NCBI RefSeq assembly: GCF_003122325.1
Contig: NZ_QFBC01000019.1
Location: forward strand, 1-64,000
Source: Rhizobium album
GTDB taxonomy: Bacteria > Pseudomonadota > Alphaproteobacteria > Rhizobiales > Rhizobiaceae
Direction: 5' to 3'
DNA: 64,000 nt
Program-made: the position numbers and the translations under genes
Notes under the pieces: model-generated
Seen by the model: the letters and a program-made list of their open reading frames with translations, nothing else
Databases searched by the model: none
What the model was told of the DNA's origin: nothing
Shown: positions 8,380 to 40,057 of the stretch, piece by piece
Position numbering within the stretch: position 1 is the first letter of the stretch
Layout of the letters: each line of letters starts with the position of its first letter

Positions 8380-8388
8380 TGAGGACCT

Positions 8389-9326: not shown

Positions 9327-9347
9327 AGGAACGTCAACGGGTTTCGA

Positions 9348-11840: not shown

Positions 11841-11871
11841 CCGGCGACAGACTCAGCCTTTTCGCGCGGCC

Positions 11872-13584: not shown

Positions 13585-13606
13585 ACTTGTCCCCTTTTGC
13601 CCTAAA

Positions 13607-16110: not shown

Positions 16111-16475
16111 CGCCCCAACACCTTCTGCACGATCTTTACAAGGCTTTCCGCATTGAATGGCTTTGTGATCCACCCTGTTGCTCCCGCCGCCTTCGCACGT
16201 GTTTTCAGCTCAGCATCCGATTCTGTCGTGAGAAAGATGATCGGAACGCCGACGTTCGAACCTGACTGACGAAGAGCCTCGATCATCTGCAGACCGTTCA
16301 TGTTAGGCATGTTCAGGTCGGTAATGATAAGGTCGTAGTTGCCCGCTTTCGCCTTATTCAGTCCGTCGAGACCGTCGACGGCCTCCGTGACCTGGTATCC
16401 GGCGTTGGTCAAAGTAATCTTCGTCGTCATCCGAATGCTGGCGGAATCGTCCACGGTAAGAATTTGGGCGTCCAT
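16107..16475 (-). CDS. cheY: CheY single-domain response regulator (cluster A)
   Basis: A 122-residue receiver starting MDAQILTVDDSASIRMTTK. The acidic pocket is DD at 8-9, the phospho-acceptor is D53 (IITDLNMP), the switch threonine stands in FLTTES and the lysine is in ITKPFN. It has no output domain, so it should act on the flagellar motor or another target by binding. The ATG 16475 has AGGAGG seven bases upstream; a TTG two codons earlier is unlikely. It shares one base with the STAS gene stop upstream and overlaps cheA downstream. Confidence 0.95.
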   Translation of the reverse strand: MDAQILTVDDSASIRMTTKITLTNAGYQVTEAVDGLDGLNKAKAGNYDLIITDLNMPNMNGLQMIEALRQSGSNVGVPIIFLTTESDAELKTRAKAAGATGWITKPFNAESLVKIVQKVLGR

Positions 16476-23351: not shown

Positions 23352-23915
23352 TCAAACCTCTTTCAAATATTGGGTAATTGCTCCCAGCGACATGACATTC
23401 GCGCTGGGGCACATTAGAATTGCGGCTTCCGGCATGGCCGATGCGAAAGCGGTCGCAGGCTCCTGGACGACGGCTGTTCCTCCGGCCTCAACGACAGCCT
23501 TCAGACCCCTTGCGCCATCCTGATTGGCGCCGGTGAGCACGATTGCAATCAGCGCCGGGCCATAGGCGTCGGCCGCAGTTTCGAACAGCACGTCGATCGA
23601 GGGCCGGGAAAAAAGAACCGGCTCGTCGCTCGACAGCGATACCGTCCGATCCACCTCAACCAATAGATGATAAGCTGGTGGCGCGAAATAGATCGTGCCG
23701 CCGGTGATCGGCTGCTTGTCTTCCGCCTCCTCGACCGGAAGCTTGCACTTGGCCCGAAACAGTTCGGCCAGTGCGCTGCGCCGGTCCGGCGGAACATGGA
23801 CCACGACCAGGACCGGCATCCGGAAGCCGGCCGGCAGAGCGGGAAGAATGGCCGAGAGCGCTTCGAGGGCGCCCGCCGAAGCTCCGATCACCACAGCCTC
23901 TGGTTCGATCGTCAT
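23352..23915 (-). CDS. cheB: CheB methylesterase domain, no receiver (cluster B)
   Basis: A 187-residue free-standing methylesterase domain. S13 is in GASAGALEA, a histidine in VVVHVPPDR and an aspartate in LTGANQDGARG give the catalytic triad. The receiver normally fused in front is missing, so its activity cannot be gated by CheA through phosphorylation. The true start is ATG 23915, overlapping the cheR stop as ATGA; the frame is open for 63 more codons upstream inside cheR but reads as non-protein. As no CheA is encoded in this cluster, it may act on a non-receptor target or on the CHASE3 kinase's signalling partner. Confidence 0.92.
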   Translation of the reverse strand: MTIEPEAVVIGASAGALEALSAILPALPAGFRMPVLVVVHVPPDRRSALAELFRAKCKLPVEEAEDKQPITGGTIYFAPPAYHLLVEVDRTVSLSSDEPVLFSRPSIDVLFETAADAYGPALIAIVLTGANQDGARGLKAVVEAGGTAVVQEPATAFASAMPEAAILMCPSANVMSLGAITQYLKEV

Positions 23916-24754
23916 CAGTCGCCCCGCCGCTGATAGAGTTTCTCTTCCCTTACGAAGTCCTCGAACGCACCGGCATGGCGTGAGAACCGTAGGCTTTCCT
24001 TGGCGCCAAGCCCCAGAAACCCTTTTCGGGCCAGCGAGTCCTTGAACAGCCCCAGTGCCCGATCCTGCAGATCTCTGTCGAAATAGATCAGCACGTTGCG
24101 ACATGAGATCAGATGCATCTCGGCGAAGACCGCGTCGGTCACCAGACTGTGGTCGGCAAAAACCACGTTGCGCCGCAACGTTTTGTCGAAGGTGACCTTG
24201 CCATAAGCCGCCTGGTAATAATCGGATAACGAAGACTTGCCGCCTGATCTGCGGTGGTTCTCCGTGAAAAGCTGCAGCCGATCCAGAGCGAATATTCCTG
24301 CCTCTGCCGTCTTGAGCGCCTCTGGATTGATATCGGTGGCATAGAACAGCGTCCGTTCTTCCAGACCCTCTTCACGGAACAGGATGACCAGGGAATAGAG
24401 CTCCTCGCCGCCGCTGCAGCCGGCGATCCACACCTTGATCGACGGATAGGTCCGCAGATGCGGCACGACCTTTTCCCGTATCGCCTTGAAGTAGGAAGGG
24501 TCGCGAAACATTTCGCTGACCTGTACCGTCAGGAACCGCAACATCTGGGGCAACATGTCGGGGTCGCGCAAGAGGCTTTCCTGCATGGCGGAAAAGGTGG
24601 TGAACCCCAGTTGCTCGCGCGCCTGCTTGAGCCGCCTTTTGATGGACGCCATCGCATAGCTGCGGAAGTCATAGTGATATTTGAGAAACAGCGCCTCCAG
24701 CAGGAGCCTGATCTCGATGTCCTCTATCTTTTCCGACGCAAGCATCTCCGTCAT
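23915..24754 (-). CDS. cheR: CheR-type methyltransferase (cluster B)
   Basis: A 279-residue SAM-dependent methyltransferase. An N-terminal helical domain with HYDFRSYAMASIKRRL leads into the SAM fold with VWIAGCSGGEELYSL, YATDINPEAL and ISCRNVLIYFD. It diverges from the CheR proteins of clusters A and C (for example GAKES in place of GHSES near the end). The start overlaps the hybrid kinase stop by four bases and the stop overlaps cheB, so all three are translationally coupled. Its methyl acceptor is unknown, as no receptor is encoded within the cluster. Confidence 0.93.
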   Translation of the reverse strand: MTEMLASEKIEDIEIRLLLEALFLKYHYDFRSYAMASIKRRLKQAREQLGFTTFSAMQESLLRDPDMLPQMLRFLTVQVSEMFRDPSYFKAIREKVVPHLRTYPSIKVWIAGCSGGEELYSLVILFREEGLEERTLFYATDINPEALKTAEAGIFALDRLQLFTENHRRSGGKSSLSDYYQAAYGKVTFDKTLRRNVVFADHSLVTDAVFAEMHLISCRNVLIYFDRDLQDRALGLFKDSLARKGFLGLGAKESLRFSRHAGAFEDFVREEKLYQRRGD

Positions 24755-27700
24755 TTGGGCATCCAGACGCGAACGAGCGACAGGAGTTTTTCAACGTCTA
24801 GCGGCTTTGCCATGTAATCATTGGCGCCGGCCTCGACACAGCGCTGCTGGTCGTCCGGCATGGCCTTGGCTGTCAAGGTTATGATCGGCAGCTTTCTCCA
24901 TTTCGAATTGCTGCGGATCTCACGTGTCGCGGTAAGCCCGTCCATGACCGGCATCATGACATCCATGAGCACGAGATCGACCGGCGCGTCTGGCGCCGAT
25001 TTTTCCAGGACATCAAGTGCCTCTCGGCCGTTTCGGGCGATCTCAATGATCGCACCCCTCGGCTCGAGGATGTTGGTGAGCGCATAGACATTGCGCACGT
25101 CGTCCTCAACTACGAGGATCCGTCGACCTTCGAGAAGGGCGTCGCGGCTGCGAGCTTTGCGGATCATCTTTTGCTGCTCGGCCGGCAGTTCCGAAACCAC
25201 CTGGTGCAGGAAGAGACTTACTTCATCCAGCAACCGTTCGGGTGACTTCGCCCCCTTGATGATGATCGACTTCGAATAACGCCGCAGCCGTTGCTCGTCA
25301 TCGGCCGTAAGGTCGCGGCCGGTATAGACGATGACGGGCGGGAAAGCGTAGGCACTTTCCTGGCTGAGCGTTTCCAGGAGAGAGTAGCCGGATGCATCCG
25401 GCAGGGAGAGATCCAGAACCATGCAGTCGAAGGTTTCCCGCTTCAGGAGTTCCAGGCACTCTGCCGCCGTGCTTGCCGTTACGGTCTCTACGTCGTGCGA
25501 GGCCAGCAGTTTGCCGACGGCCTCGCGCTGCACTGGGTCGTCCTCGACAATCAGCACCCGGCGCACGCCTTGCGAAAGCCTGGCTTCAAACTTCTGCAGC
25601 ACGTCGACGAGTTGTTCCCGGTTTACAGGCTTAAGGAGATACCCCACGGCACCGAGCGAATAGGCGGTTTCGGTATGGTCGCTTGCCGAGACGACGTGAA
25701 TGGGAATGTGGCGCGTCTGCACGTCGTGCTTGAGACGGTCGAGAACCGCAAGACCGGATTGATCCGGCAATCCGACATCAAGCACGATCGCGCTCGGCCG
25801 GAATTCCTTCGCGAGGTTCAGCGCCTCCTCGGCAGTTCCGGCAACGATCGACTGGAAGCCCATCTCGCGCGACAGATCGCGTACAATGGACGCAAAGGCT
25901 TCGTCGTCTTCGATCACGAGAAGAACGCGCTTTTCCTCCGTCAGCGCATGGCGATCGTCATCGACCTTGCGAACCGGCATTGCTTGACGAGCAGGTTCCG
26001 CCTGCGATGTGATCGGCGCAACCGCAGTGCTGGGTCTCACATCGCGCGGCGTGACCTTCGCCGGATCGTAGATTTGCGGAACGGTCACCGTGAACGTGCT
26101 TCCCTCGCCCGGCTGGCTTTCAAGGTCGATGGCACCGCCGAGCAGGCGTACGAGCTGGCGAGAGATGGAAAGGCCGAGCCCCGTACCGCCAAACCTGCGG
26201 CTGATGGTGCCGTCGGCCTGGTGGAAGGCATCGAAGACACTCTGCTGCTGATCGGCGGCAATACCAATTCCCGTGTCGGCTACCGAAAACGCGATGTGTT
26301 TGTCAGGCATGCTCCGAACCGACATGGAAACTTGGCCCGCTTCGGTAAATTTGATGGCGTTGGACAGGAGGTTCTTGAGCACCTGTTCAAGCCGCTGCGG
26401 ATCCGTATCGATTGTTTGCGGGCAATCCGGATCGACCTCGATGACGAAACTCAGCTTCTTGTCGGCCGCCAGCGGCTGGAACATTTGGCGGAGATTGGTC
26501 GTCAGCCGCTCGATCGAAACAGTCTCGGGCCGGATTTCAACGTGGCCAGCCTCGATCTTCGACAGATCGAGAATGTCGTTGATCAGGTTCAGAAGGTCAT
26601 TGCCGGATGACTGGATCGTCTTCGCATATTTGACCTGTTCCTCGGTCAGGTTGTCCTCCGGATTATCGGCCAGCAGCTTGGCGAGGATGAGGGAGGAGTT
26701 CAGGGGGGTACGAAGCTCGTGAGACATGTTGGCGAGGAAGTCGGATTTGTATTGGCTCGCCTGCTCGAGTTCACGCGCCTTGAGCTGGACGGCGGCGTTG
26801 GCCTGTTCGAGAGTGTCGCGTTGTCCCTCCAGTTGCTGCGCCTGTTCTTCAAGTTGCGAGTTGGTCTGTTCGAGCTCGACCTGCTGCTGTTCGAGGCGCG
26901 CCTGCGATTCCTTGAGCGCCCGGCCCTGTTCCTCCAGTTCCTCGTTGGAGACCCTGAGTTCCTCGCTTTGCGTTTGCAGTTCTTCAGACTGCCTCTGTGT
27001 TTCTTCCAACAGGTTTTGCAGTTCGCTGCGATAGGTGGCCGACCGTACGGCAACGGCGACTGCTTCCGACGCGCGGTCCAGAAGGGCGATCGTGCTTTCA
27101 TCGACCGGCCGCAGGAAGCCGAGTTCGATCACGGCGTTGACGGCGCCGTCGACGCTGCCTGGCAAGATGACGAGGTGTCGTGGCTTATCCGAGCCGAGCG
27201 CCGACCCGAAGGACAGATAGCCGTCCGGCACGTCATCGACCACCATGGCTCTGCCCTCCGCGGCCGCCTGTCCGAGCAAACCCTCTCTCGACCGGAACCC
27301 GGCCGGGATGACTTTTTCATCGGGGACACCATAAACCGCGGCACGCTGGAAGTTGTTATGGTCACCGGAATAGGCGGCGCCGGCGACGGCGCCAACATAG
27401 CGCGCCAGAAAGTCGAGAATGCTGTTGCCGAGCCGTTCGATCGGCTGGTCGCCCAGCATGGCATTGGCGAGACCGACCTGACCGGACTGGAGCCACTCCT
27501 CACGGCGGCGAGCAATCGTCGCACGCCTGACCAGGAACCCGATCGTGCCGGTCAACAGCAGACCGAGAGCCCCTGACAGCAGTGTGCTCCAAAGCGCCTG
27601 TCGTTGGGCGCTTTTCATATCCGTTAGCCGCTGCACACGGACTTGTGCTTCCCCCTCCGCCATCGCCGCGATCTGGGCTCGGATCGCGTCCATCTCCAGC

Positions 27701-28173
27701 TTGCCGCTATCCGAGTTGACGAGGGCCAGTGCTCCTTCAAGACCTTGGGATCGACGGACCTCGATCGTCTGAGCGAGTTCGGCAAGTTTCGCGTCAACAT
27801 GCCGCTTCAGCGTCGTCAGCCTCTGGCCTTGGCCCGGATTAGCGCCTGTCAACTCGCCGATCTTCTCCAGTTGCGGAGGGATCGCTCGAAGGGCTGCATT
27901 GTAGGGCGCGAGATAGCCATCATTGTTCGTCAGAAGGAAGCCGCGTTGACCGGTCTCGGCGTCCTGGACGTGCGAAAGCAGTTCGTCCAGCGCGACGATC
28001 GCAACGTGTGTCTGCACAACCCTCTCGTTGCCGTCTTCCAATGACAGCAGATTGAAGTATGCCACCACGCCGCTGATGAGGAAGAAGACGACTGCGCCGA
28101 CAAGGCCGACCGCGACAGCAGGGTCGAGCCCCAAGGTCTTTTTTGAGAGATTGGAGCGACCTGGCTGCTTCAT
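24751..28173 (-). CDS. CHASE3-GAF hybrid histidine kinase with three receivers
   Basis: An 1140-residue membrane sensor kinase. Helix 1 (about 20-42) and helix 2 (about 195-216) flank a CHASE3 domain. A GAF domain (about 235-380) and a long coiled coil (about 385-475, rich in Glu and Gln repeats) follow. The kinase has H485 in MSHELRTPLN, N box in LKNLLSNAIKF and GTGLGLSISRQL. Three receivers finish the protein, with LDVGLPDQSG, LDLSLPDAS and LMDVMMPVMDG. The coiled coil can transmit a methylation or stalk signal. It is the first gene of cluster B and is followed by cheR and cheB; multi-step phosphorelay to the receiver-HWE kinase is likely. Confidence 0.95.
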   Translation of the reverse strand: MKQPGRSNLSKKTLGLDPAVAVGLVGAVVFFLISGVVAYFNLLSLEDGNERVVQTHVAIVALDELLSHVQDAETGQRGFLLTNNDGYLAPYNAALRAIPPQLEKIGELTGANPGQGQRLTTLKRHVDAKLAELAQTIEVRRSQGLEGALALVNSDSGKLEMDAIRAQIAAMAEGEAQVRVQRLTDMKSAQRQALWSTLLSGALGLLLTGTIGFLVRRATIARRREEWLQSGQVGLANAMLGDQPIERLGNSILDFLARYVGAVAGAAYSGDHNNFQRAAVYGVPDEKVIPAGFRSREGLLGQAAAEGRAMVVDDVPDGYLSFGSALGSDKPRHLVILPGSVDGAVNAVIELGFLRPVDESTIALLDRASEAVAVAVRSATYRSELQNLLEETQRQSEELQTQSEELRVSNEELEEQGRALKESQARLEQQQVELEQTNSQLEEQAQQLEGQRDTLEQANAAVQLKARELEQASQYKSDFLANMSHELRTPLNSSLILAKLLADNPEDNLTEEQVKYAKTIQSSGNDLLNLINDILDLSKIEAGHVEIRPETVSIERLTTNLRQMFQPLAADKKLSFVIEVDPDCPQTIDTDPQRLEQVLKNLLSNAIKFTEAGQVSMSVRSMPDKHIAFSVADTGIGIAADQQQSVFDAFHQADGTISRRFGGTGLGLSISRQLVRLLGGAIDLESQPGEGSTFTVTVPQIYDPAKVTPRDVRPSTAVAPITSQAEPARQAMPVRKVDDDRHALTEEKRVLLVIEDDEAFASIVRDLSREMGFQSIVAGTAEEALNLAKEFRPSAIVLDVGLPDQSGLAVLDRLKHDVQTRHIPIHVVSASDHTETAYSLGAVGYLLKPVNREQLVDVLQKFEARLSQGVRRVLIVEDDPVQREAVGKLLASHDVETVTASTAAECLELLKRETFDCMVLDLSLPDASGYSLLETLSQESAYAFPPVIVYTGRDLTADDEQRLRRYSKSIIIKGAKSPERLLDEVSLFLHQVVSELPAEQQKMIRKARSRDALLEGRRILVVEDDVRNVYALTNILEPRGAIIEIARNGREALDVLEKSAPDAPVDLVLMDVMMPVMDGLTATREIRSNSKWRKLPIITLTAKAMPDDQQRCVEAGANDYMAKPLDVEKLLSLVRVWMPK

Positions 28174-28456: not shown

Positions 28457-28732
28457 ATGGCGACTCACCAGGCGATCGATGACTTGGTCAAGGAAGCAAC
28501 CGCCCGCGACTTCGTTGCCGACGCTTTCCAGCACTGCAAGTATATCGGCTATGATCAGTCCGCGCTGCCACTCCTCGACAAAGCTGGCATCTCCGGCTCC
28601 CTCGATGAAGGCACCCTCACGATCAAGAACAGCAACGAGATCGCGGCTTTCATCCAGGAGCTCGGCAAGCTTCGGGTCTGGGGGCGTGAACCTTCGGTCA
28701 AGCTTGGCAAGGCTTCTCCTCCCGTTGTGTAA
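28457..28732 (+). CDS. free-standing KatE C-terminal tail paralogue
   Basis: A 91-residue protein that matches the last 86 or so residues of the catalase at 61372-63522 over its whole length: both have [19 protein letters not shown], then QHCK, YIGYD or FIGYD, and both end in [11 protein letters not shown] and LGKASPPV. By eye about three quarters of positions are identical. In large catalases this segment belongs to the DJ-1-like C-terminal domain and has no haem site, so this protein is not a catalase. A clear ribosome site (TAGGAG) and a stress-type promoter precede it, and a hairpin follows, so it is an expressed gene rather than debris. Its role is unknown; it may bind KatE or another partner. 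Confidence 0.85.
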   Translation: MATHQAIDDLVKEATARDFVADAFQHCKYIGYDQSALPLLDKAGISGSLDEGTLTIKNSNEIAAFIQELGKLRVWGREPSVKLGKASPPVV

Positions 28733-29022: not shown

Positions 29023-30960
29023 ATGGCACTGGTAAAGACTTCCCAACTGGGCGCACAGCCGGCCGCGAGCAAAGTGTTGACATCAGGCTCCAGGGCGAAC
29101 AATGGAGGGGACAAGTCAGCGGTTTCACGCCGCACCCATGATCGGTCCCGCATGCGCCAGGAAAAGGCAGCCGAGCGGATCAGTGCAGCGACGGAAGAGT
29201 TATCGACCGGCGTTACCGAGGCGGCTTCGGCCGCCGAAGAGCTTCGCCGCGCGCTCGAGCAAATCGCCAGCGGCGCGGAAGAAGCAGCTGGCGCAGCGCA
29301 CGAATCCCTTTCTGCCACCACGCACCTTTCCGCGCGGTTCACCGATGCCCGATCCGAAGCAGAGGCCGCCCGCAAACGCGCCGAGGAACTCCAGGTCTCC
29401 GTGCTGGAAGCCGCAGCACAGATCGACACGTCGGTCATCGCCATCGACACCAACGCCTCGCGCCAGATAGCCTCGGTCGCAATCGTAGAGAAGCTGCAGT
29501 CGCAGGCTGAGATGATCGGCGCGACCACAGTCGCCGTTGCCGATATATCCGATCGCACCAACCTGCTTGCGCTTAACGCCGCGATCGAGGCCGCACGCGC
29601 CGGTGATGACGGTCGCGGCTTTGCCGTGGTCGCCGACGAAGTCCGCTCGTTGGCAGAAGTTGCCGAGCGCAGCTCGCGTGACGTCAACCAGCACGCCGAG
29701 ACGATCGTCGACGGCGTCCGCCGGATTGCCGCTCGGTCGAATTCCGCTGCGACCAAGGCGCGCGAGCAAACGGCCTCTGGACGGGCTGTCGCCGAAGAAC
29801 TGCACGCCATCCGTTCGGGCCTGAGCGCTCTTTCGCAAAACAGCCAGAAAATCCTGATAGCGGCTGTCGAGGCTGAAGTGGCGACCCGAGAGGCGCAGAA
29901 GGGTGCCGAAACGGTCGCTGCCGCCGCAGAAGAACAGTCGGCGGCGGCGACAGAAGCGCAACGCGCGGTACAACAGCAGAGTTCGGCGCTGGAGGAAAGT
30001 CAGAAGACGGCTCAGGCGCTGGCCACTCTTGCCGACGAACTGATGAACGCAGGAGGCCGGTCCTCACGGGCGGAAGAACTGAGTTCGGCCGCCGAAGAAC
30101 TCTCAGCAACCGTCCAGGAGCTTTCCGGCGCCGCCGGCGAAATCCTGATCGCCGTTGAGCAGATAAGCCGCGGCGCTGAAGCCCAGGCGGCCGCCACCCA
30201 GCAGGCCAATGCAGCGATGGTCCAGATCGAAAAAAGTGCCTCGCAGGCTCAGACAGGTGCCGAACAGGCAAGCGGGCGGAGCCAGGAAATCAAGGCCCTA
30301 CTGGCAAAGAACAAGGCCAACCTGATGGGCATCGCATCTGGAATTTCCGACGCCCTGACCGAAACCCGCAATGCCTTGGCGGACCTCAACTCGCTTAGCG
30401 AGATCGGTTTTCAGATAGAGCGCATTGTCGACCGGATCGTGCTTGTCGCCGTCCAGACCAACATGCTGGCGGTCAGCGGCTCGGTGGAAGCGGCCCGAGC
30501 CGGTGAGGCCGGTCGCGGATTTGCCGTCGTCTCCACTGACATCCGCAAGCTCGCCAAGGATGCCGCGGAAAACATCGAAGGCATCAAGGATAACGTGCGG
30601 TCGATACAAGCCCAGATGCTCGCCGTTCAGCGCGAGCTCGAAGCGACCGTGGCGGCTTCCGAAGCGGAGATCGCCAAGGGCAAGCTGATCGTCGATCTTC
30701 TGTCCGCAGCGGAAGCCGACGTCGAAGCGATAGTGCGCGGCAATGCCTCCATTCTGGAAGCCGCGCAGGCAATTCTCATTGCGGCCACGCAGGTTCAGGC
30801 CGGCACGCAGCAGATCGCCTCCGTTGCCCAAGAGGCAAGCGCTGCCTCGGAACAGGCCGCCACCGCGGCGCGACAGCAGTCGCGCAGTGCGGAAGACTTG
30901 GCCGCAGCCGTGGAGGAAATCGCATCGCTGGCAGACGAACTCCAGATGTCGGGAAGCTGA
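29023..30960 (+). CDS. cytoplasmic chemoreceptor with two signalling tips
   Basis: A 645-residue soluble, Ala/Glu-rich helical protein with no membrane segment and no recognisable sensor domain. It has two MCP tip motifs: [18 protein letters not shown] with [15 protein letters not shown] at about 177-210, and [18 protein letters not shown] with [15 protein letters not shown] at about 476-510. Each is flanked by coiled-coil repeats, so the chain looks like two receptor hairpins in tandem. The second tip departs from consensus (AVSGSVE for ALNAAIE). I take ATG 29023 as start; GTG 28960 is in frame too and neither has a strong ribosome site. It leads the cluster C operon. Confidence 0.9.
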
Positions 30961-30964
30961 CACG

Positions 30965-32389
30965 ATGGAAAGCTCCCCTTTGACGGCGGACCTACGACGC
31001 CGGCTCGTATTCAGGGTCGGACGGCAAAGCCACGAGATTGACGCCGCTGGGGTTCTGGAAGTGGTAAGAGCCGGCCACATCACCCGGGTGCCCAATGGTC
31101 CGGCGGCCCTGAAGGGTATCACAAACCTGCGGGGGCGGCCGGTACCGGTCCTTTCGATGGGGCAGATCCTATCCCGAGACGACCATGCCTCCCGCCACGG
31201 CGGCAAGATCATCGTCTATGATCACGGCGGAGCTGTCGGCCTGCTCGTTGACGACGTGCTCACGCTTTCCGAGGATACGAGCGCAACACCGCTCGAGGGC
31301 TTAGGCAATCTTCTCGATGCCGCTTTCAAGACCACACGGCGGGCGCCGTTAGGGCGAACGGACTCCATCGAGCGCGACGCTGGCAGCCGGTCAAGCTTGA
31401 CGCTAATGCCTGTTTTGTCGTTTCGCGTCGCGGGTCAGCTTTACGGACTGCCCCTCGAACAAGTGCGTGAAGTCGCTATCATTCCTGATGATCTTGCAGT
31501 ACTGCCTAACGGAAAGGAAGCGGTAATCGGACTAATGTCCCTGCGCAACGGCGTCCTGCCGCTGGTGTCGCTCGCGTCGCTGATGGCTCTCGAAGTCACA
31601 AAATCGTCCGCTGACCATGGGCGAATCGTCGTTGTTGAGCATAAGGGTGACCTGATCGGTCTTGTCGTCGACGCTATAGAGGTCATCAATCGCCTACCGG
31701 AGCACGCTATCGATTCCGTTCCCGCAGTCCTGCAGCGTGGCGGCGGCGATGCGCAGATCGCGGCGATCGGCAGAATTGCGGGTGGCGGACGACTGATCTC
31801 TATCCTGTCACCAGATAGGCTTTTCGGTCATGACGAGGTCGCAAAGGCCATTGGCCAGAGAGCAGGAGCCGTATCGATGGAGACAGCGCCGGAAGCAATT
31901 GAACAGTTCCTGATCTTCCAGCTGGGCGAGGAAAATTACGGTCTTCCTATCGCCTCTGTGGACGAAGTTATCAGGGTGCCAGTCGATGTCACCCGTATGC
32001 CCGGCGCGCCTGCCTTCGTGACAGGGGTCATCAATCTGCGTGGCAGGCCCATCCCATTGATCGACCAGCGAAGCCGCTTCGACAGCCCGGCCTCGGTGCA
32101 GGCAGCAGCGGCACGCGCGATCGTCGTGACGATCGGCAAGCTGCAGGCGGGCTTCGTCGTGGACGCCGTGACGGAGGTCAAGGCCCTCCCCGCAGCCGCT
32201 CTCACTCCAGCGCCCGAGTTTTCTTCCGAGCAGACGGATGTTTTCGACCGCATCGCCCATATCGAAGCGGATGGACCCATGGTGCTTCTGCTCGATCCGC
32301 AGGAGCTTCTGACGAGAGCGGAGCGGGACGTGGTCGCCGCCATCACCGAGCGCAAGGCCGGTACCGAGGAAAAGACGGGCGACATCTGA
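30965..32389 (+). CDS. triple-CheW coupling protein
   Basis: A 474-residue protein made of three CheW domains in tandem: about 10-140 (LVFRVGRQSHEID, NLRGRPVPVLS), 150-295 (SFRVAGQLYGLPLEQ, SLRNGVLPLVSL) and 305-455 (FQLGEENYGLPIASV, NLRGRPIPLID). Most CheW proteins have one domain. Three in a chain could hold receptor and kinase in fixed ratio; the two tips of the preceding receptor fit such a multivalent adaptor. The start ATG is five bases after the receptor stop. The stop is two bases before cheB. Confidence 0.93.
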   Translation: MESSPLTADLRRRLVFRVGRQSHEIDAAGVLEVVRAGHITRVPNGPAALKGITNLRGRPVPVLSMGQILSRDDHASRHGGKIIVYDHGGAVGLLVDDVLTLSEDTSATPLEGLGNLLDAAFKTTRRAPLGRTDSIERDAGSRSSLTLMPVLSFRVAGQLYGLPLEQVREVAIIPDDLAVLPNGKEAVIGLMSLRNGVLPLVSLASLMALEVTKSSADHGRIVVVEHKGDLIGLVVDAIEVINRLPEHAIDSVPAVLQRGGGDAQIAAIGRIAGGGRLISILSPDRLFGHDEVAKAIGQRAGAVSMETAPEAIEQFLIFQLGEENYGLPIASVDEVIRVPVDVTRMPGAPAFVTGVINLRGRPIPLIDQRSRFDSPASVQAAAARAIVVTIGKLQAGFVVDAVTEVKALPAAALTPAPEFSSEQTDVFDRIAHIEADGPMVLLLDPQELLTRAERDVVAAITERKAGTEEKTGDI

Positions 32390-32391
32390 CC

Positions 32392-33477
32392 ATGATCCGT
32401 CTCCTGATTGTTGAAGATTCCGCCCTGATGCGGAAGCTGCTCGGCCAGATTTTCGGCGCGGAGCCGGATTTCGAGATCGGGTTTGCCCGCGACGGCGACG
32501 AGGCGTTGAAGCTTATCTCGGACTTTCGCCCCGACGTGGTCACGCTAGACATCCATATGCCGCGGATGAACGGCCTGGAATGTCTCGACCGCATCATGCT
32601 CGAGCACCCCTGCCCCGTGGTGATGGTCTCGTCGCTCACCGAGGAGGGAGCGGAGGAGACTTTGGTGGCTCTCGAAATCGGCGCCGTCGACTTCATCGCA
32701 AAACCGAGCGGGGCCATTTCCCTCGGCATCGAGGAACTGGCCCCCCGCCTGGTAGAAAAGGTCCGCATCGCCGCCTCCGTGCGCATCCGGCGCAGCCGCC
32801 GGCTCGCAGAGCGCGTCCGCCTCGCGCAGCCCCTGCCGTCCGCACCGATATCCCCTTCCAAACCTCGGCACACCGCGTCCCGTCCCATGACCGAAGGTGT
32901 GGCGGGCCATGGGCTGGTGCTGGTCGGCACGTCGACAGGTGGCCCTCCGGCGCTTGATGCGGTGCTTGCCCGGTTGCCGTCCGGGTTCAAATGGCCAATC
33001 GTTGTCGCGCAGCACATGCCCGCCTCTTTTACCGGCCCCCTTGCCAAGCGCCTCGACAAGATTTGCGCGATGAGCGTTACGGAAGTCGCGCGGCCAACGC
33101 GGCTCGAGCCAGGCAATATCTACATCGCCCGGGGTGACGCCGATATCCTGATCTCTTCCCGCGCCGGGGCTCTGGTGGCGATGGCGGCGCCGAGCGACCC
33201 CGAATTTCGGTGGCATCCGAGCGTCGATCGCATGGTACGCTCGGCGATGAAGCACCTGCCGGCGCAATCCTTGATCGGCGTCCTGATGACCGGCATGGGC
33301 AACGACGGCGCGACATCCATGGCCGAACTCAGGTCTGCCGGCGGCTACACGATTGCCGAAGCCGAGGAGACTGCCATCGTCTGGGGAATGCCGGGCGAGC
33401 TGGTACGGCGCGGCGGAGCGTCAGAGGTGAAGCGACTGGACCAAATCGGGCAACACCTTGTGGATCGGGTCTGCTGA
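32392..33477 (+). CDS. cheB: CheB protein-glutamate methylesterase (cluster C)
   Basis: A 361-residue protein with receiver (DS at 9-10 region, phospho-acceptor D53 in TLDIHMPRMNG, lysine in IAKPSG) and methylesterase domain. The triad is a serine in VGTSTGGPPALD, a histidine in AQHMPASFTG and an aspartate in TGMGNDGATS. It should demethylate the cytoplasmic receptor of the same operon. The stop and the cheR start overlap by one base. It differs from the cluster A CheB throughout the linker, so the two do not look like recent duplicates. Confidence 0.97.
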   Translation: MIRLLIVEDSALMRKLLGQIFGAEPDFEIGFARDGDEALKLISDFRPDVVTLDIHMPRMNGLECLDRIMLEHPCPVVMVSSLTEEGAEETLVALEIGAVDFIAKPSGAISLGIEELAPRLVEKVRIAASVRIRRSRRLAERVRLAQPLPSAPISPSKPRHTASRPMTEGVAGHGLVLVGTSTGGPPALDAVLARLPSGFKWPIVVAQHMPASFTGPLAKRLDKICAMSVTEVARPTRLEPGNIYIARGDADILISSRAGALVAMAAPSDPEFRWHPSVDRMVRSAMKHLPAQSLIGVLMTGMGNDGATSMAELRSAGGYTIAEAEETAIVWGMPGELVRRGGASEVKRLDQIGQHLVDRVC

Positions 33478-34343
33478 TGGCCGTGCCGCCAATCATCTCC
33501 CAGAAATACCAAGAAGAGCCTCTTTCTGCGGGCGACCTCGAGGAAATCTGCGCGCTCATCTACAAGCGCAGCGGCATGGTGTTTGGTGAGACGAAGCGCT
33601 ATTACATCGAGCGCCGCATCACTGATCTGGTGCGTCAGCGGCGGGCGCAATCGGTAAGGGACTACATTTCGATACTGCGTGGCGATCTTGGTGAATCCGA
33701 ACGACTGATCAACAGCGTCACGGTCAATGAGACCTATTTCTATCGCGAACTGCACCAGCTCGCATGCCTGAGCAATTCGATCCTTCCCGACCTCATCCGC
33801 GCGAAGGATCCGGGCGACCGGATCCGCATCTGGTCGATGCCCTGCTCCAGCGGAGAGGAACCCTACTCCATTGCAATCTGGCTGCTCGAAAACTGGGCGC
33901 TGGTCGATGCCTACAATATCGAGATCGTCGGTACAGATATCGATACCGACATTCTGCGCCGCGCGGTCGACGGTTATTTCGGCGAGCGGTCGCTCTCCAA
34001 ACTTCCCTCCGATCTTCTCGATCGCTATTTTGAACCCGAACGGGATCAGCAGCGTCGGCTGATCGACGATCTCAGGGAATCGGTCACTTTCGCCAAGGGC
34101 AATATCGTCGATCGCCAGAGCCTTGCCGCGATCGGTCGTTTCGACGTGATCTTCTGCCGCAACCTGCTTATCTATTTCGACGAGGCTGCCCGCGAGGCTG
34201 CGGCGCGGAACATTCATGAAATGCTCTATCCCGGCGGCTATGTATGCCTTGGCCATACCGAGTCGATGTCGAGGATATCGGAGACCTTCGAACCGGTGCG
34301 TTTTCCCGATGCCATCGTTTATCGCGAGACGAGACACAGATAG
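33477..34343 (+). CDS. cheR: CheR chemoreceptor methyltransferase (cluster C)
   Basis: A 288-residue methyltransferase. It has an N-terminal helical domain with YYIERRITDLVRQRR, the SAM fold with IWSMPCSSGEEPYS, GTDIDTDILRRA and DVIFCRNLLIYFD, and the C-terminal GHTESMSRI. The start ATG shares a base with the cheB stop and the stop is followed at once by the cheA start, so expression is coupled. No tetratricopeptide or other extension is fused. Confidence 0.96.
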   Translation: MAVPPIISQKYQEEPLSAGDLEEICALIYKRSGMVFGETKRYYIERRITDLVRQRRAQSVRDYISILRGDLGESERLINSVTVNETYFYRELHQLACLSNSILPDLIRAKDPGDRIRIWSMPCSSGEEPYSIAIWLLENWALVDAYNIEIVGTDIDTDILRRAVDGYFGERSLSKLPSDLLDRYFEPERDQQRRLIDDLRESVTFAKGNIVDRQSLAAIGRFDVIFCRNLLIYFDEAAREAAARNIHEMLYPGGYVCLGHTESMSRISETFEPVRFPDAIVYRETRHR

Positions 34344-36299
34344 ATGGATGAATTGATCGAACAATTCGCCATCGAGGCGCGCGAACTCGTCCAGCAGGCC
34401 TCGGACGATCTGATGGCACTTGAAGCGGATACCGGGAATCGCGAACATCTGGAAAGCGCCTTTCGGGCGGTACATACGCTGAAGGGCTCCGTCGGCCTTT
34501 TCGACCTCGGCCCGATGCAGGACGTCCTGCATCGCGGCGAAGACCTCCTCTCGCAAGCGAGAGCAGGCACCATTGCAGTGGACGCGACCCTCGTTGATCC
34601 GCTTCTATCGGTGATCGAATGGGTGGAAGACAGCATCGACGCAATCGTGGAGACCGGGCATCTGTCCGACGCTCAGGAGAAGCAAGCCTCCCGGCTGCTG
34701 GGACTTTTGACCAGCGAAATGATCGGGCGCGAAACCCACGAACCGACGGGCCCATCGACAACAATACCGGATTGGGCGATCTCACTTGCCGAACTACTCT
34801 CCTCCGATGCCCACGGGGCGGCGATCGCCATTCGCTACGAACCGCACCCGGAATGCTTCTTCAATGGCGACGATCCTCTGGCGTTGGTCGCGCGCCTGCC
34901 CGGGCTTCGACATCTGTCGCTCTCGCTCAGAGAGCCACCTCCTTCTCTGAGAGACTATGATCCCTTCCGCTGCACCCTGGTGATCGAGGCGATCTGCGAT
35001 GGGCCGCTGTCGAAGCTGCAAGCCGAATTTCGCCTCATCCCCGATCAGGTGACGCTGGCGGAGTTGCCGCGGCCGGACGATCAGCGGAAATCCGCCGCAA
35101 CAGATCTCCCGCCTGAACGCTCGGCCGATCGCCAGACGACGATGCGGGTGGATGCGGCGCGGATCGACAGGCTGATCGAGATCGCCGGTGAACTGGTCAC
35201 CGCTAAGAACGGCTTGGTGCCGCTCGCCGAAGCAGCGCGAATCCAGGGTGACAGCGCGCTCGCCAGACGCATCAGCTCCAGCCACGAGGAGATCGAAAGG
35301 CTGGTGGGATCGCTGTACAGCGCCGTCACCAAGGCCCGGATGATCCCTCTGGAGCGGACGTTCCGCCGTTTTCCGCGGCTGGTCCGAGAGACGTCGACGA
35401 AGCTCGGAAAGGCGCTAGATCTGGTGATCGAAGGCGAGACTGTCGAAGCCGATCGGGAGATCGTCGAAAACCTGTTTGAGCCCCTGCTCCATCTCATCCG
35501 GAACGGGCTCGACCACGGTATCGAACACGAAGGCGAACGGGTGCAATCATCGAAGCCGGCGAGAGGGCGCATCCTTCTGCGCGCACGGCAGCGGGGCGAT
35601 CAGATCGAGATCGAGGTGACCGACGACGGCCGGGGCATGGACCCGGAGCGAATCCGAAAAGCCGCCGTGGACCGCGGCCTGCTGACCGCCTCGCGCGCGG
35701 CGGCCCTGAGTGACGGCGATGCTTTGCAGCTCGTCTTCTCGCCGGGCTTTTCGACTGCCGCCGCGGTATCGGACCTCTCGGGCCGCGGCGTCGGCCTCGA
35801 TGTCGTGCAGCGTTCGATCCAGCGGCTCGGCGGCACGCTCGACATGCAAAGCAGGCCTGAAACCGGAACGTCCTTCACGCTCAAGCTCCCGATCAGCTTC
35901 TCGATGGCACAACTGATGGTAGTTGAAGTTGGTGGCGAACGTTACGGGATTCCGATTTCCGACATCCTTGAAACCGTGAAAGTGCCAACACAGGCCATTC
36001 AGCCAATCAGGGCGGGCCGTGCATTCATTTTGCGCGACCGCACCATCCCCTTGCTTGATCTCGCCGACTTGCTGCAGATCCCGCACGCGAACGCCGCGGG
36101 TTCGGACTTGAAGGTTCTGGTGGCCCGAGCCGGGGAAGACCGGATCGGCGTGGTTGTCGATGCAATTGCCGAGAGGGCCGAAACCCTTTCGCGACCGCTG
36201 TCGGGTCTGCTGCAGGGTGTGACAGGCATAGCCGGCACAACACTCCTCGGCGACGGCAGGGTGCTGCTCGTCCTGGATCTCAAGGAGTTGATCCGATGA
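34344..36299 (+). CDS. cheA: CheA sensor histidine kinase (cluster C)
   Basis: A 651-residue kinase. The HPt domain has H44 in VHTLKGSV. A poorly conserved middle region (about 130-250) stands where P2 would be. Dimerisation helices follow (ARIDRLIEIAGELV), then the ATPase domain with HLIRNGLDHGIE, DDGRGMDPE and GRGVGLDVVQ, and the CheW-like P5 domain ending in LVLDLKELIR. No receiver is fused, unlike in many Frz-type systems. It should phosphorylate the CheY two genes downstream. Its stop overlaps the STAS-like gene. Confidence 0.96.
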   Translation: MDELIEQFAIEARELVQQASDDLMALEADTGNREHLESAFRAVHTLKGSVGLFDLGPMQDVLHRGEDLLSQARAGTIAVDATLVDPLLSVIEWVEDSIDAIVETGHLSDAQEKQASRLLGLLTSEMIGRETHEPTGPSTTIPDWAISLAELLSSDAHGAAIAIRYEPHPECFFNGDDPLALVARLPGLRHLSLSLREPPPSLRDYDPFRCTLVIEAICDGPLSKLQAEFRLIPDQVTLAELPRPDDQRKSAATDLPPERSADRQTTMRVDAARIDRLIEIAGELVTAKNGLVPLAEAARIQGDSALARRISSSHEEIERLVGSLYSAVTKARMIPLERTFRRFPRLVRETSTKLGKALDLVIEGETVEADREIVENLFEPLLHLIRNGLDHGIEHEGERVQSSKPARGRILLRARQRGDQIEIEVTDDGRGMDPERIRKAAVDRGLLTASRAAALSDGDALQLVFSPGFSTAAAVSDLSGRGVGLDVVQRSIQRLGGTLDMQSRPETGTSFTLKLPISFSMAQLMVVEVGGERYGIPISDILETVKVPTQAIQPIRAGRAFILRDRTIPLLDLADLLQIPHANAAGSDLKVLVARAGEDRIGVVVDAIAERAETLSRPLSGLLQGVTGIAGTTLLGDGRVLLVLDLKELIR

Positions 36300-36538: not shown

Positions 36539-36643
36539 GAAAGACGCCTGAGGATCGTCTCTCGAACTTGCGAAAGCGTCTTCAGGCAAATAAGTGTTCC
36601 AGCATATATGCGGCCCGATGGTCGCGAGGACTTCGGGGGTAAA

Positions 36644-37027
36644 ATGACGGTCACGGTTCTGGTCGTAGATGATAGTAAATTGGCTCGAATCGTGGCAGGT
36701 AAGGCGCTTGCCGCTTTGCAGCCTGACTGGACGCGTGTGGAAGCTGGCAGCGCTCAGGATGCCTTGGCCCTTGTCGGATCTCAGCAGATCGACGTCGCCA
36801 TACTGGATTTCAACATGCCCGACAAAGACGGGCTGGAGTTGGCAGCTGAATTGCGCTCCGCGCATCCTCACATGCCGATCGCAGTCATCACAGCCAATGT
36901 TCAGGATGAAATTATCGCCCGGGTCCGTGCCTTAAACGCCACGTTTGTCGCAAAACCCGTTACCCAGGATGCACTCGGTCCGTTCATATCAGGAGCTGCT
37001 CTTCGGCTCAAGAAGGCAGGCACATGA
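36644..37027 (+). CDS. cheY: CheY-like single-domain response regulator (cluster C)
   Basis: A 127-residue receiver. It has VVDDSKLAR with DD at 9-10, phospho-acceptor D55 in ILDFNMPDKDG, the switch threonine in VITANVQDE and a lysine in VAKPVTQ. No output domain is present. I take ATG 36644 as start because GGGGGT stands just before it and the receiver begins there. The stop overlaps the cheC start (ATGA), which supports a phosphatase partnership. Confidence 0.94.
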   Translation: MTVTVLVVDDSKLARIVAGKALAALQPDWTRVEAGSAQDALALVGSQQIDVAILDFNMPDKDGLELAAELRSAHPHMPIAVITANVQDEIIARVRALNATFVAKPVTQDALGPFISGAALRLKKAGT

Positions 37028-37662
37028 TAGCGGACACGACAGATCTGAACGAACTGGAGCGCGACGCGCTCACAGAGCTTGTTAATATAGGGGTTAGCCG
37101 TGCCGCAGCAAGCTTACGAAAAATGGTCAACAAGGAAGTCCTCCTTTCTGTACCTTCAGTCGAGATCGTCACACGAAGGTCCGCAGCGTCGTTGATTGGG
37201 CAGCGGGAGAGCGAATCCCTCATCGCAGTACAGCAGCAGTTCGACGGCCCCTTTTCCGGACGCGCGCTCCTGATTTTCCCGCAGAGCAATGGGCTTTCGC
37301 TCGTGCGCGCAATAGTCGGCGACGAGATGCAAGAGGCTGAACTTCTCGAAATGGAAGACGAAGCCCTGGCCGAGACCGGCAACGTCATTCTGAATGGCTG
37401 TCTAGGCTCTATGGCGAATATGCTGCAGCACAGCCTAAAAATGTCCCTGCCGGATGTCCGGCGCGGCGACAGCACCCTATTGTTTGATGCACACAACAGC
37501 AGCCGAGACGCAAGCTTTGTGTTGTTTCTCTATATCAACTTCTCGGTACGGGAACGAAATATTCGCGGATATATCGCGATGATCATGGACCTGCCCTCTC
37601 TGGAGAAGCTGAAGCAGCTCATTTCTGATTTCATCGAACGCGTGATGAACGAAACCGATTAG
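37024..37662 (+). CDS. cheC: CheC-type CheY-phosphate phosphatase
   Basis: A 212-residue CheC-family protein with two active-site helices of the ExxN type: ALTELVNIGVSRAA near residue 17-24 and ALAETGNVILNGCLG near 116-128. These Glu and Asn residues are the ones that dephosphorylate CheY-P in this family, and both sites look intact. Location directly after cheY, with overlapping codons, suits this role. CheC is not usual in alphaproteobacterial chemotaxis operons, where several CheY proteins act as a phosphate sink. Confidence 0.88.
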   Translation: MIADTTDLNELERDALTELVNIGVSRAAASLRKMVNKEVLLSVPSVEIVTRRSAASLIGQRESESLIAVQQQFDGPFSGRALLIFPQSNGLSLVRAIVGDEMQEAELLEMEDEALAETGNVILNGCLGSMANMLQHSLKMSLPDVRRGDSTLLFDAHNSSRDASFVLFLYINFSVRERNIRGYIAMIMDLPSLEKLKQLISDFIERVMNETD

Positions 37663-37690
37663 GCAAGTCTGATGAATGTGAGCTGAGTTG

Positions 37691-40057
37691 ATGGCTGATA
37701 ATGCCGATGGGCCGAGAATTGAAGAGTTACATGCGGACCTAAACGCTGCTCAGCGACGTCTGCAGTTAGTGCTTGACGCAGCCGGTGCGACCTGTGGGTG
37801 GGAATGGGATATCAGTAAAAAGCGTTTCGTCGCGGATGCGTTGTTTGCCGGTATCACGAACCAGGATCCGGTCGAACTGGCCGACGGCGTCTCGCCCGAT
37901 CGCTTCTTCGTATCCATCCACCCTGAGGATCTTAAACGGGTAAAGATTGCGGTTGCCGGGATAATTGCCGGATCAGAAGTTTTTTCCAGGGAATACAGAC
38001 TTTTACGCGCCGACGGTGGGTATCGCTGGGTCCGCGCCAGCGGCCGCGCGATACGCGATGCGGAAGGCGAGCCAGCCAAATTTGTTGGATCCTTGATCGA
38101 CATTACTGAACAAAAGCGTGTCGATGAGCAGCTCCGCATTGCCCAATCAGCCGGTGGAATCGGTACCTTCGAATACATTGTGGGCTACGGGACGATCAGC
38201 GTTTCGGAGCAGCTATGCCGGTTATTCGGTTTGCATCCCAACAAAATGCTGCCGGTCAGAACTCTTAATGGTCTCATCCATCCCGACGACAAACCTGTCA
38301 TCGATCTCACCAGGCCGGATGAGCTTCAAAGCGAAGGCAATATTGAGTTCCGGATCAGACGCGCAAGTGACGGACAAGAGCGCTGGCTCGCGCGGCGCGG
38401 CGAGTATGTTGACGACATCCATACAGACGGGCGCCGCTATGTTGGCGTGATATTCGATATTACCGAAGCCAAGCATACACAAGAAAGCTTGCGTGAAGCG
38501 AACGACATGCTTGCAGAGCTCGCTCGTGAAAGCCTGCGCGAGCGTGACCGGGTATGGAAGAACTCCCGAGACCTCCTTGTCGTGATCGATACGGCAGGTG
38601 TGTTTCGGGATGTCAGCCCCTCGTGGTTCGACATCCTTGGTCACGCGCCTGATAAGGTTACTGGCAGCAAAGTGATCGACGCTGTATGGCCAGAGGATCG
38701 CGACCAGGCGAAATCGGACCTGAGGAAAGCCGCCGAGAACATCCACACCGAGATCGAGGTGAGGATGACTCACGAGGACGGGTCCCCTCGGACGATTTCA
38801 TGGATGACGTCCCGGGAAGACGACCGTGTTTACGCCTATGGTCGTGACGTGACCGTCGAACAGCAGCAAAAGGTCGCCCTGGAAGAAACGGAAGCCCAAT
38901 TACGACAGGCGCAGAAGATGGAAGCCGTCGGCCAGCTAACCGGCGGTATTGCACATGATTTCAATAACATGTTGACTGGAGTGATTGGCGCTCTGTCTAT
39001 AATTAAGCGAAGGATTGCGGCCCGCAGAACGGAAGATCTCGACAAGTTCATCGACGCCGCGACCTCCTCCGCGCATCGCGCGGCCTCGCTAACCCACCGG
39101 CTACTTGCTTTTTCTCGGCGCCAATCGCTTGATCGGCAATCTGTTGACGTAAAGCAGCTCGTCACGTCCATGGAGGAGCTCTTTCAACGCACCCTCGGCG
39201 AGCAGATCGAACTTGCGATCAACGTTGCCGCCGAGACTTGGAAGGCCGAAACCGATGCCAATCAGCTGGAAAGCGCCATACTCAATCTGGTGATCAATGC
39301 CCGCGACGCCATGCCGAACGGCGGCCAATTGACGATCGAAACGAACAACGTAGCTTTCACCGAAGCCGACCTTGCCAAGGGCGAGACCCTTGAGCCTGGA
39401 AGCTACGTTGTGATCGCTGTGAGTGACACGGGTACCGGTATGTCACAGGCGACCATCGCTAAGGCATTCGATCCCTTTTTCACCACAAAGCCAATTGGTC
39501 AGGGAACCGGTCTGGGTCTCTCGATGATCTACGGCTTCGCGCAGCAGTCCGGGGGGCATGCCCGAATCTACAGCCAGCTCGGAATGGGAACGACCATCAA
39601 GCTTTATATTCCCGCCAGCCACGCAACCGGAGAGCAATCGGCATTTGAGAAGGAAGAGGAGGCCATTCTTCCCCGGGGCAAGGGTGAAACTATACTCGTC
39701 GTAGAAGATGACGATTCTGTTCGCATGCTTGTCGTCGATACCCTGAAAGAGCTTGGATACAGGGTATTAGAAGCCATTGATGGTGCGCAGGCATTGCCAT
39801 TCATTGAAGGCAAAGGGCGAATTGATTTGCTTGTCTCCGATGTAGGTCTTCCCGGCTTGAATGGTCGACAACTCGCGGAAATCGCGATAGCTGCGCGTCC
39901 CGCGCTGAATGTTTTGTTTATCACCGGTTATGCCGCAGCGGCCGCTGCACGTGCTGAGTTTCTAGCGCCGGGGATGGAAATGATCACGAAGCCGTTTGCC
40001 ATTGATGACCTTGCCCAGAAGGTGACAGAGATGCTCAAGCCTTCGAATCCTCGATAG
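37691..40057 (+). CDS. multi-PAS hybrid histidine kinase (AHDFNN type)
   Basis: A 788-residue soluble hybrid kinase. Three PAS domains (about 20-145, 150-270, 285-400), each with a PAC-like tail such as GSLIDITEQK or GVIFDITEAK, lead to the kinase with IAHDFNNMLTG, N box in ILNLVINARDAM and G box GTGLGLSMIYGF. A receiver ends the protein (VVEDDDSVR, VSDVGLPGLNG, ITKPFA). There is no membrane segment, so the signal is likely cytosolic, perhaps redox or light by analogy with PAS. It follows cheC by 28 bases, apparently the last gene of cluster C. I use ATG 37691. Confidence 0.93.
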   Translation: MADNADGPRIEELHADLNAAQRRLQLVLDAAGATCGWEWDISKKRFVADALFAGITNQDPVELADGVSPDRFFVSIHPEDLKRVKIAVAGIIAGSEVFSREYRLLRADGGYRWVRASGRAIRDAEGEPAKFVGSLIDITEQKRVDEQLRIAQSAGGIGTFEYIVGYGTISVSEQLCRLFGLHPNKMLPVRTLNGLIHPDDKPVIDLTRPDELQSEGNIEFRIRRASDGQERWLARRGEYVDDIHTDGRRYVGVIFDITEAKHTQESLREANDMLAELARESLRERDRVWKNSRDLLVVIDTAGVFRDVSPSWFDILGHAPDKVTGSKVIDAVWPEDRDQAKSDLRKAAENIHTEIEVRMTHEDGSPRTISWMTSREDDRVYAYGRDVTVEQQQKVALEETEAQLRQAQKMEAVGQLTGGIAHDFNNMLTGVIGALSIIKRRIAARRTEDLDKFIDAATSSAHRAASLTHRLLAFSRRQSLDRQSVDVKQLVTSMEELFQRTLGEQIELAINVAAETWKAETDANQLESAILNLVINARDAMPNGGQLTIETNNVAFTEADLAKGETLEPGSYVVIAVSDTGTGMSQATIAKAFDPFFTTKPIGQGTGLGLSMIYGFAQQSGGHARIYSQLGMGTTIKLYIPASHATGEQSAFEKEEEAILPRGKGETILVVEDDDSVRMLVVDTLKELGYRVLEAIDGAQALPFIEGKGRIDLLVSDVGLPGLNGRQLAEIAIAARPALNVLFITGYAAAAAARAEFLAPGMEMITKPFAIDDLAQKVTEMLKPSNPR

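What the first reader, a model, noticed from the sequence alone, without database searches (positions are those of the whole stretch)
29023..32389. Cytoplasmic receptor with two signalling tips paired with a triple-CheW adaptor
The receptor has no membrane or sensor domain yet two separate MCP tip motifs (about residues 177-210 and 476-510) on one chain, the second non-canonical. The next gene fuses three CheW domains. A receptor that holds two hairpins and an adaptor with three couplers would give a fixed-ratio array unlike the usual trimer-of-dimers lattice. I know of no described system with both features together. It is the most likely place for an undescribed signalling device in the window.
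Basis: partly seen in the sequence, partly recalled or inferred. Interest (0 to 1): 0.8.

Follow-up and report, generated by a model that had tools for sequence, protein, structure and literature searches.

The report
F9 chemosensory cluster: DosM plus CheW3
These genes encode a known but rare kind of free-floating bacterial sensor sandwich, in which a rod-like receptor with two signalling tips works with a three-part adaptor; here it is a relative of the one already seen in the cholera bacterium, with some features of its own.

Summary
The receptor (29023-30960, 645 aa) carries two MCP signalling domains and no membrane or sensor domain. The next gene (30965-32389) carries three CheW domains. 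This pair is the published hallmark of the F9 chemosensory class: DosM plus triple CheW, which in Vibrio cholerae build a cytoplasmic sandwich with two baseplates on the usual hexagonal lattice. The window also has CheB, CheR, CheA, CheY, CheX/CheC and a PAS hybrid kinase.

All 88 loci examined (86 distinct) have the two-tip receptor; 87 have one ORF with three CheW domains. Tip-to-tip spacing is exactly 300 residues in 73 of 77 measurable proteins. The second tip is a conserved, specialised tip, not a decayed one.

Features of this branch that my searches did not find in print: a shortened first CheW domain lacking the interface-2 segment, a shared change in tip 2, CheX in the cluster, and no single-tip receptor nearby. 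Weak covariation hints that tip-1 and tip-2 units pack together, as in an antiparallel dimer; this is exploratory.

Verdict: new member of a known kind, modest interest.

The parts
29023..30960 (+). dosM-like gene: double-signalling-domain chemoreceptor, 645 aa, no membrane span, no sensor domain
   Evidence: Pfam MCPsignal x2; full-length relatives L032-L038 and 80 genome-contig loci; AlphaFold all-helix, pLDDT 90.4
29545..29652 (+). signalling tip 1 (residues 175-210), canonical hairpin tip
   Evidence: conservation in 70 aligned sequences; helix break at residue 193 in the model
30046..30057 (+). break between the two 300-residue units (residues 342-345)
   Evidence: AlphaFold helices end at 341 and restart at 346; repeat period 300
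30445..30552 (+). signalling tip 2 (residues 475-510), conserved variant tip
   Evidence: residues 464-529 align to the receptor fragments of entries 3ur1 and 4jpb; covariation axis; conservation
30965..32389 (+). cheW3: adaptor with three CheW domains, 474 aa
   Evidence: Pfam CheW x3; AlphaFold pLDDT 86.6, pTM 0.83
30998..31327 (+). CheW domain 1, shortened: lacks the last two strands
   Evidence: Pfam positions 3-90 of 138 only; matches E. coli CheW only up to its residue 112; strands in the model
31406..31840 (+). CheW domain 2, full length
31898..32329 (+). CheW domain 3, full length, keeps the E. coli 'PAPEF' stretch of interface 2
   Evidence: alignment to 2ho9 residues 17-155
32392..33477 (+). 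cheB: receiver plus methylesterase
   Evidence: Pfam
33477..34343 (+). cheR methyltransferase (start inferred from relatives)
   Evidence: Pfam; relatives of 288 and 291 aa align from residue 90 of the longest ORF
34344..36299 (+). cheA: Hpt, dimerisation, HATPase and CheW-like domains
   Evidence: Pfam
36608..37027 (+). cheY-like single receiver
   Evidence: Pfam Response_reg
37024..37662 (+). CheX/CheC-type phosphatase
   Evidence: Pfam CheX E 2.1e-10, CheC E 1.4e-6
37688..40057 (+). hybrid histidine kinase with PAS domains
   Evidence: Pfam; a receiver-bearing ORF of 500 aa or more follows cheX in 44 of 55 CheX-bearing loci

Best explanation
The locus is an F9-class chemosensory cluster. 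The receptor is a DosM: a tandem duplication of one MCP signalling hairpin (two units of 300 residues) that forms a rod with a signalling tip at each end and no sensor of its own. Both tips dock into baseplates made of CheA and the triple CheW, so that the rod holds two parallel baseplates together in the cytoplasm. Signals enter through other receptors that join the sandwich; CheA then phosphorylates the CheY next door, CheX/CheC removes the phosphate, and CheB/CheR adapt the receptors. Shown here: gene content, domain counts, tandem duplication, constant 300-residue spacing, conserved linkage, and covariation that fits a hairpin at tip 2 (and, less firmly, at tip 1). Inferred from the V. cholerae homologue: the rod and the double-baseplate sandwich. 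Inferred from what Che proteins generally do: the phosphorylation and adaptation steps. Unknown: which receptors give the input and what CheY controls.
For: Two MCPsignal domains and three CheW domains in adjacent genes. In print these two proteins are the signature of class F9, with cytoplasmic double-layer arrays stabilised by DosM (passages; geometry). The V. cholerae gene numbers put CheA at VC1397, CheW3 at VC1402 and DosM at VC1403. All 88 loci examined have a two-tip receptor and 87 an ORF with three CheW domains; in L105 they are split 1+2 over two ORFs (two records were met twice, so 86 are distinct). Tip spacing is exactly 300 residues in 73 of 77 proteins where both tips could be measured (299, 299, 301 and 302 in the other four; 12 of 89 not measurable with the motif used), and in 6 of 6 more measured among eight loci tried. 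Tip 2 keeps the residues equivalent to Tsr E385, R388 and F396 in 70 of 70 sequences (Tsr numbering recalled). Residues 464-529 match the receptor fragments of 3ur1 and 4jpb, entries that also hold a CheW chain. Covariation peaks where a hairpin at tip 2 predicts in every version of the coupling test, and at or near the top for tip 1.
Against: No array has been seen in this organism. Two mutual-information scans did not single out the tips. No single-tip receptor was found beside this F9 cluster, although V. cholerae arrays appear to need one. No class-specific CheA model or CheA tree was used to confirm F9.
Confidence: 0.85

Rival explanations
1. Fold-back receptor: the chain turns at the glycine-bearing linker (residues 342-345) so that both hairpins lie side by side and both tips meet the same baseplate. 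One chain would then act as a covalently linked receptor 'dimer' in a single-layer array.
For: The linker is a predicted helix break. Covariation between unit-1 and unit-2 arms is suggestive: inner arms p 0.05 and 0.03, outer arms p 0.08 and 0.08, with three and five smooth components removed.
Against: V. [quoted passage not shown] The same covariation is predicted by an antiparallel dimer of extended rods. The signal is weak and fades with ten components removed (p 0.09 and 0.13).
Confidence: 0.1
2. A wholly new signalling device with a fixed receptor:adaptor ratio and a non-hexagonal lattice.
For: Two tips per chain and three couplers per chain would constrain stoichiometry if all are used; CheW domain 1 is shortened, so the couplers are not equivalent.
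Against: The same architecture is already described as class F9, with a hexagonal lattice in V. cholerae.
Confidence: 0.03
3. Tip 2 is a relic: only tip 1 signals, and unit 2 is a spacer.
For: Tip 2 departs from the usual MCP tip at several positions, including the equivalents of Tsr N381 and E402 (numbering recalled).
Against: The departures are themselves conserved: G486 and D506 in 70 of 70, beside E489, R492 and F500 in 70 of 70 and R508 in 69 of 70. The hairpin covariation is strongest in this unit (rank 1 of 179, p 0.001 or less).
Confidence: 0.04

Closest known systems
Vibrio cholerae cluster I (F9): DosM VC1403, triple CheW VC1402, CheA VC1397
   Same: Two-signalling-domain receptor and a CheW with three CheW domains encoded side by side, with a CheA.
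   Different: Here the first CheW domain is shortened, and a CheX/CheC phosphatase and a PAS hybrid kinase lie in the cluster. The V. cholerae proteins and gene cluster were not themselves compared here, so differences from that organism are not established.
F9 clusters surveyed across bacteria (64 full and 8 partial sets among 2781 species, PMC9321776, passages read)
   Same: dosM and cheW3 as signature genes; patchy distribution; 98% of DosM homologues with only the two signalling domains.
   Different: The passages read do not describe a CheX-bearing branch, a shortened CheW domain or tip-2 differences; its supplementary tables were not read.
Rhodobacter sphaeroides cytoplasmic cluster
   Same: Cytoplasmic double-baseplate array (passages).
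   Different: As recalled, built with single-tip receptors and single-domain CheW proteins; not compared here by sequence.

Membership tests
F9 chemosensory class (DosM/CheW3) | Receptor with two MCP signalling domains in tandem | tested here: met
   Two Pfam stretches, period-300 duplication
F9 chemosensory class (DosM/CheW3) | Adaptor with three concatenated CheW domains | tested here: met
   Three Pfam stretches, AlphaFold model; domain 1 is shortened
F9 chemosensory class (DosM/CheW3) | Full set: CheA, CheB, CheR, CheY in the same cluster | tested here: met
F9 chemosensory class (DosM/CheW3) | Receptor without sensor domain (98% of published DosM homologues) | tested here: met
   No other Pfam family; no membrane span by hydropathy
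F9 chemosensory class (DosM/CheW3) | CheA falls in the F9 class by class-specific models or phylogeny | not tested
   No such model was used and no CheA tree was built
F9 chemosensory class (DosM/CheW3) | Receptor is an extended rod with a tip at each end | tested here: inconclusive
   AlphaFold single chain without coordinates; covariation does not fix this
F9 chemosensory class (DosM/CheW3) | Cytoplasmic array with two baseplates | not testable with these tools
   Needs cryotomography

The most novel reading that the evidence does not exclude
DosM works as an antiparallel dimer: tip 1 of one chain pairs with tip 2 of the other at each end of the rod, so that both baseplates receive the same mixed tips. 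This would explain why the two tips carry different invariant residues, why the spacing is locked at 300, and how a sandwich with two equal faces is built from one polar chain. In the CheX-bearing branch, the shortened CheW domain 1 would be a non-equivalent coupler that cannot form the usual interface 2, leaving that contact to domain 3.
Probability: 0.3. Interest if true: 0.6.

Novelty: new member of a known kind. Interest (0 to 1): 0.3.

Why it matters
F9 arrays are rare, and the review read here calls the V. cholerae one functionally still poorly understood. A genome with a complete, conserved F9 cluster outside the vibrios offers another place to study them. The features found here (shortened CheW domain 1, conserved tip-2 signature, 300-residue spacing, CheX in the cluster) are concrete handles for asking how a two-faced array is built and which of the three couplers does what.

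Tried and rejected
Chance match for tip 2: rejected. Gene-order or sequencing artefact: rejected, same order in relatives. AlphaFold as proof of geometry: not usable; no coordinates, and the tip-2 turn is not marked as a break. Foldseek against PDB gave receptors as the best hits (9a65, 9a69, 2ch7, 3zx6) and did not tell which half matched.

Covariation, told in full. Mutual information with 70 and then 100 sequences: the tips were among several scattered peaks, not the largest; the largest peak lay at the linker and neither tip stood out. Mean-field couplings with 114 sequences (effective 72) peaked near both tips, but two control blocks had peaks of z above 3 at meaningless places. Over 18 settings the tip-2 block was rank 1 of 179 each time, the tip-1 block rank 1-5, inner cross block rank 1-5, outer cross block rank 1-18. 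Test positions 393/993/693 were set after seeing (first guess 385/985/685), so the p-values are somewhat optimistic. With one smooth component removed all four blocks, and also the two parallel tests at offset 300, reach p 0.0005, a sign of a variability artefact; I rely on the stricter versions. There the parallel tests at offset 300, which a mixed bundle might also show, are not significant (p 0.08-0.24). With ten components removed only the tip-2 block stays significant (tip 1 p 0.135, cross blocks p 0.09 and 0.13).

Partner receptors: 7 of the 30 single-tip MCP loci fetched from the own genome show no membrane span by simple hydropathy, one of them a short fragment; none was tied to this system. 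Of 26 single-tip receptors in the CheX-lacking loci, 19 have at least one hydrophobic span, so they are not simply cytoplasmic partners.

Counts by branch: CheX in 55 of 88 loci (54 of 86 distinct). Among 63 CheW3 proteins aligned (window plus 62 of 79 loci), a short domain-1 tail (81 residues or fewer) in 44 of 47 with CheX and in 1 of 16 without. Tip-2 residue 485 is S in 41 and N in 2 of 43 with CheX; N in 24, S in 2, T in 1 of 27 without. A single-tip MCP in the stretch examined in 0 of 55 with CheX and 23 of 33 without (22 of 32 distinct). Of the 33 without CheX, 9 also show no CheA, most likely because the stretch ends or is broken, so lack of CheX is uncertain there. These traits follow the tree and are not independent events.

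Full report
What is there. The receptor gene runs from ATG 29023 to the stop ending at 30960 and gives 645 residues; the adaptor gene begins at 30965 and ends at 32389, 474 residues. Pfam finds MCPsignal twice in the receptor and nothing else at E <= 0.01, and CheW three times in the adaptor. A simple hydropathy scan finds no membrane span in the receptor. The following genes are cheB, cheR, cheA, a cheY-like receiver and a CheX/CheC-type phosphatase, then a hybrid kinase with PAS domains.

It is a tandem duplication. Comparing the receptor with itself, an offset of 300 residues stands out: mean BLOSUM62 1.20 against 0.41 for the next best, with 87 of 300 residues identical. Each unit is one MCP hairpin. 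AlphaFold (70 aligned sequences, mean pLDDT 90.4, pTM 0.75) gives helices 34-192, 194-341 and 346-644: a break at tip 1, a break between the units, none marked at tip 2.

It is a known kind. Passages of PMC7534058 describe V. cholerae cluster I/F9: a concatenated triple CheW (VC1402), a receptor DosM (VC1403) with two signalling domains, arranged as a rod with one signalling domain at each end, and arrays with two baseplates. Passages of PMC9321776 name these two proteins as signature components of class F9 and report 64 full and 8 partial sets among 2781 species. Passages of PMC3964821 give hexagonal trimers of dimers at 12 nm between baseplates 35 nm apart. The founding paper (PNAS 2016) is not held and was not read.

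Relatives. In the same family 8 of 199 genomes have a full-length relative, this one included (102 have some match, nearly all ordinary receptors); in the genus 1 of 3; in the class 5 of 385; in the phylum 9 of 398 by a bit-score gap between 380 and 165 bits (41 pass the looser limit). In three other families 10 of 246, one of them broken by a stop, 1 of 18 and 9 of 119. In most genomes only the best few candidates were scored, so these are lower bounds. The scan of named genomes gave 80 loci, the best of a list that had reached its limit. All 88 loci analysed for gene content (window, 7 of the family, 80 named; 86 distinct) hold a two-tip receptor, and 87 an ORF with three CheW domains; L105 has them split over two ORFs. 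These loci were chosen by likeness to the second half of this receptor, so they show conserved linkage within one family, not independent origins.

Spacing. The distance between equivalent residues of the two tips is exactly 300 in 73 of 77 proteins and 299, 299, 301 and 302 in the rest; 12 of 89 could not be measured with the motif (two records counted twice).

Tip 2 is specialised, not decayed. In 70 aligned sequences tip 1 is close to the usual MCP tip. Tip 2 keeps the equivalents of Tsr E385, R388 and F396 in 70 of 70, and has its own fixed changes: M481, G486 and D506 in 70 of 70, V484 in 68 and S487 in 64 (Tsr numbering is recalled). Residues 464-529 align to the receptor fragments of 3ur1 and 4jpb, entries that also hold a CheW chain.

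Covariation. With 114 sequences (effective 72), coupling scores peak where hairpins at tip 1 and tip 2 predict: rank 1 of 179 for both after removal of one or three smooth components; with five removed, tip 2 is still rank 1 (p 0.0005) and tip 1 rank 4 (p 0.02). With ten removed only tip 2 stays significant. Pairs between units, which a mixed tip-1/tip-2 bundle predicts, are weaker: inner arms p 0.05 and 0.03, outer arms p 0.08 and 0.08 with three and five components removed. Of six negative controls none fell below 0.05 in those two versions, though one came to 0.054; the parallel tests at offset 300 were not significant there. Test positions were adjusted after a first look, and earlier mutual-information scans did not single out the tips. 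I take the tip-2 hairpin as supported and the mixed packing as a hint.

Two branches. Loci with CheX (55 of 88) have, as a rule, a CheA of about 650 residues, no single-tip receptor in the stretch examined (0 of 55), S at tip-2 position 485 (41 of 43) and a shortened first CheW domain (44 of 47). Loci without CheX have mostly a longer CheA, often a single-tip receptor (23 of 33), N at 485 (24 of 27) and a full first domain (15 of 16). Nine of the 33 are short or broken stretches without CheA. The tree of 76 receptors largely separates the branches (quick method, no bootstrap). The window belongs to the CheX branch. In its own family 4 of the 8 genomes fall in each branch.

The shortened coupler. 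In the adaptor model (pLDDT 86.6, pTM 0.83) domains 2 and 3 have the full set of strands, domain 1 lacks the last two. Domain 1 aligns to E. coli CheW only up to residue 112. Domain 3 aligns through residue 155 and keeps 'PAPEF', with T in place of R117. Domain 2 reads SVPAVL at that place and did not match E. coli CheW in the search. In E. coli, CheW residues R117 and F122 belong to interface 2, which links core units into arrays (passages of PMC5181776). So domain 3 alone looks able to form the usual interface 2. What replaces it in domains 1 and 2 is unknown; the covalent link within the chain is my guess.

Literature on the branch. I saw no description of the shortened CheW domain, of the CheX branch, or of an antiparallel DosM dimer in searches (open-licence papers only). 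Apart from the papers whose passages are cited above I saw listings and abstract openings only; papers on other alphaproteobacterial systems that came up (for example PMC8563088, PMC8561660, PMC7617929) and the CheA survey PMC10542144 were not read (one look into each of PMC8563088 and PMC10542144 failed), and supplementary tables were not read.

Noticed in passing
window 7291-16173 (-): A second chemosensory cluster in the same window: CheB, CheR, CheW, two membrane receptors with 4HB and HAMP domains, another CheW, and CheA (CheB and CheR by eye from the translations). A similar set (CheA, CheW, two receptors) lies on contig C7 of the genome.
   Followed up: partly
window 4808-6562 (-) and L068:8786-10537 (+): Beside each of these two other chemosensory clusters lies a long membrane-free protein (584 and 583 aa) whose clearest receptor-like trace is a degenerate MCP tip (17.3 and 28.2 bits, below the Pfam cut-off of 34.6). 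Role unknown; possibly a receptor-derived accessory protein.
   Followed up: no
window 28457-28732 (+): A 91-aa ORF just upstream of dosM resembles the C-terminal domain of long catalases (24.2 bits, just under the cut-off of 24.6); possibly a remnant.
   Followed up: no
window 23352-28173 (-): CheB- and CheR-like genes next to a 1140-aa CHASE3-GAF hybrid kinase with three receivers, facing away from the F9 cluster; a similar set lies beside the F9 cluster in L073 and L075.
   Followed up: partly
L136: Two dosM-cheW3 pairs on opposite strands in one burkholderial MAG, suggesting a duplicated F9 cluster.
   Followed up: no
L102: A MAG titled Klebsiella pneumoniae whose receptor groups tightly with that of a MAG titled Betaproteobacteria; probably mislabelled.
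   Followed up: no
plasmid hits H1-H5: Close relatives of the receptor (78-82% identical) lie on large plasmids of Agrobacterium vitis (four records) and a Rhizobium (one), so the gene occurs on plasmids.
   Followed up: no
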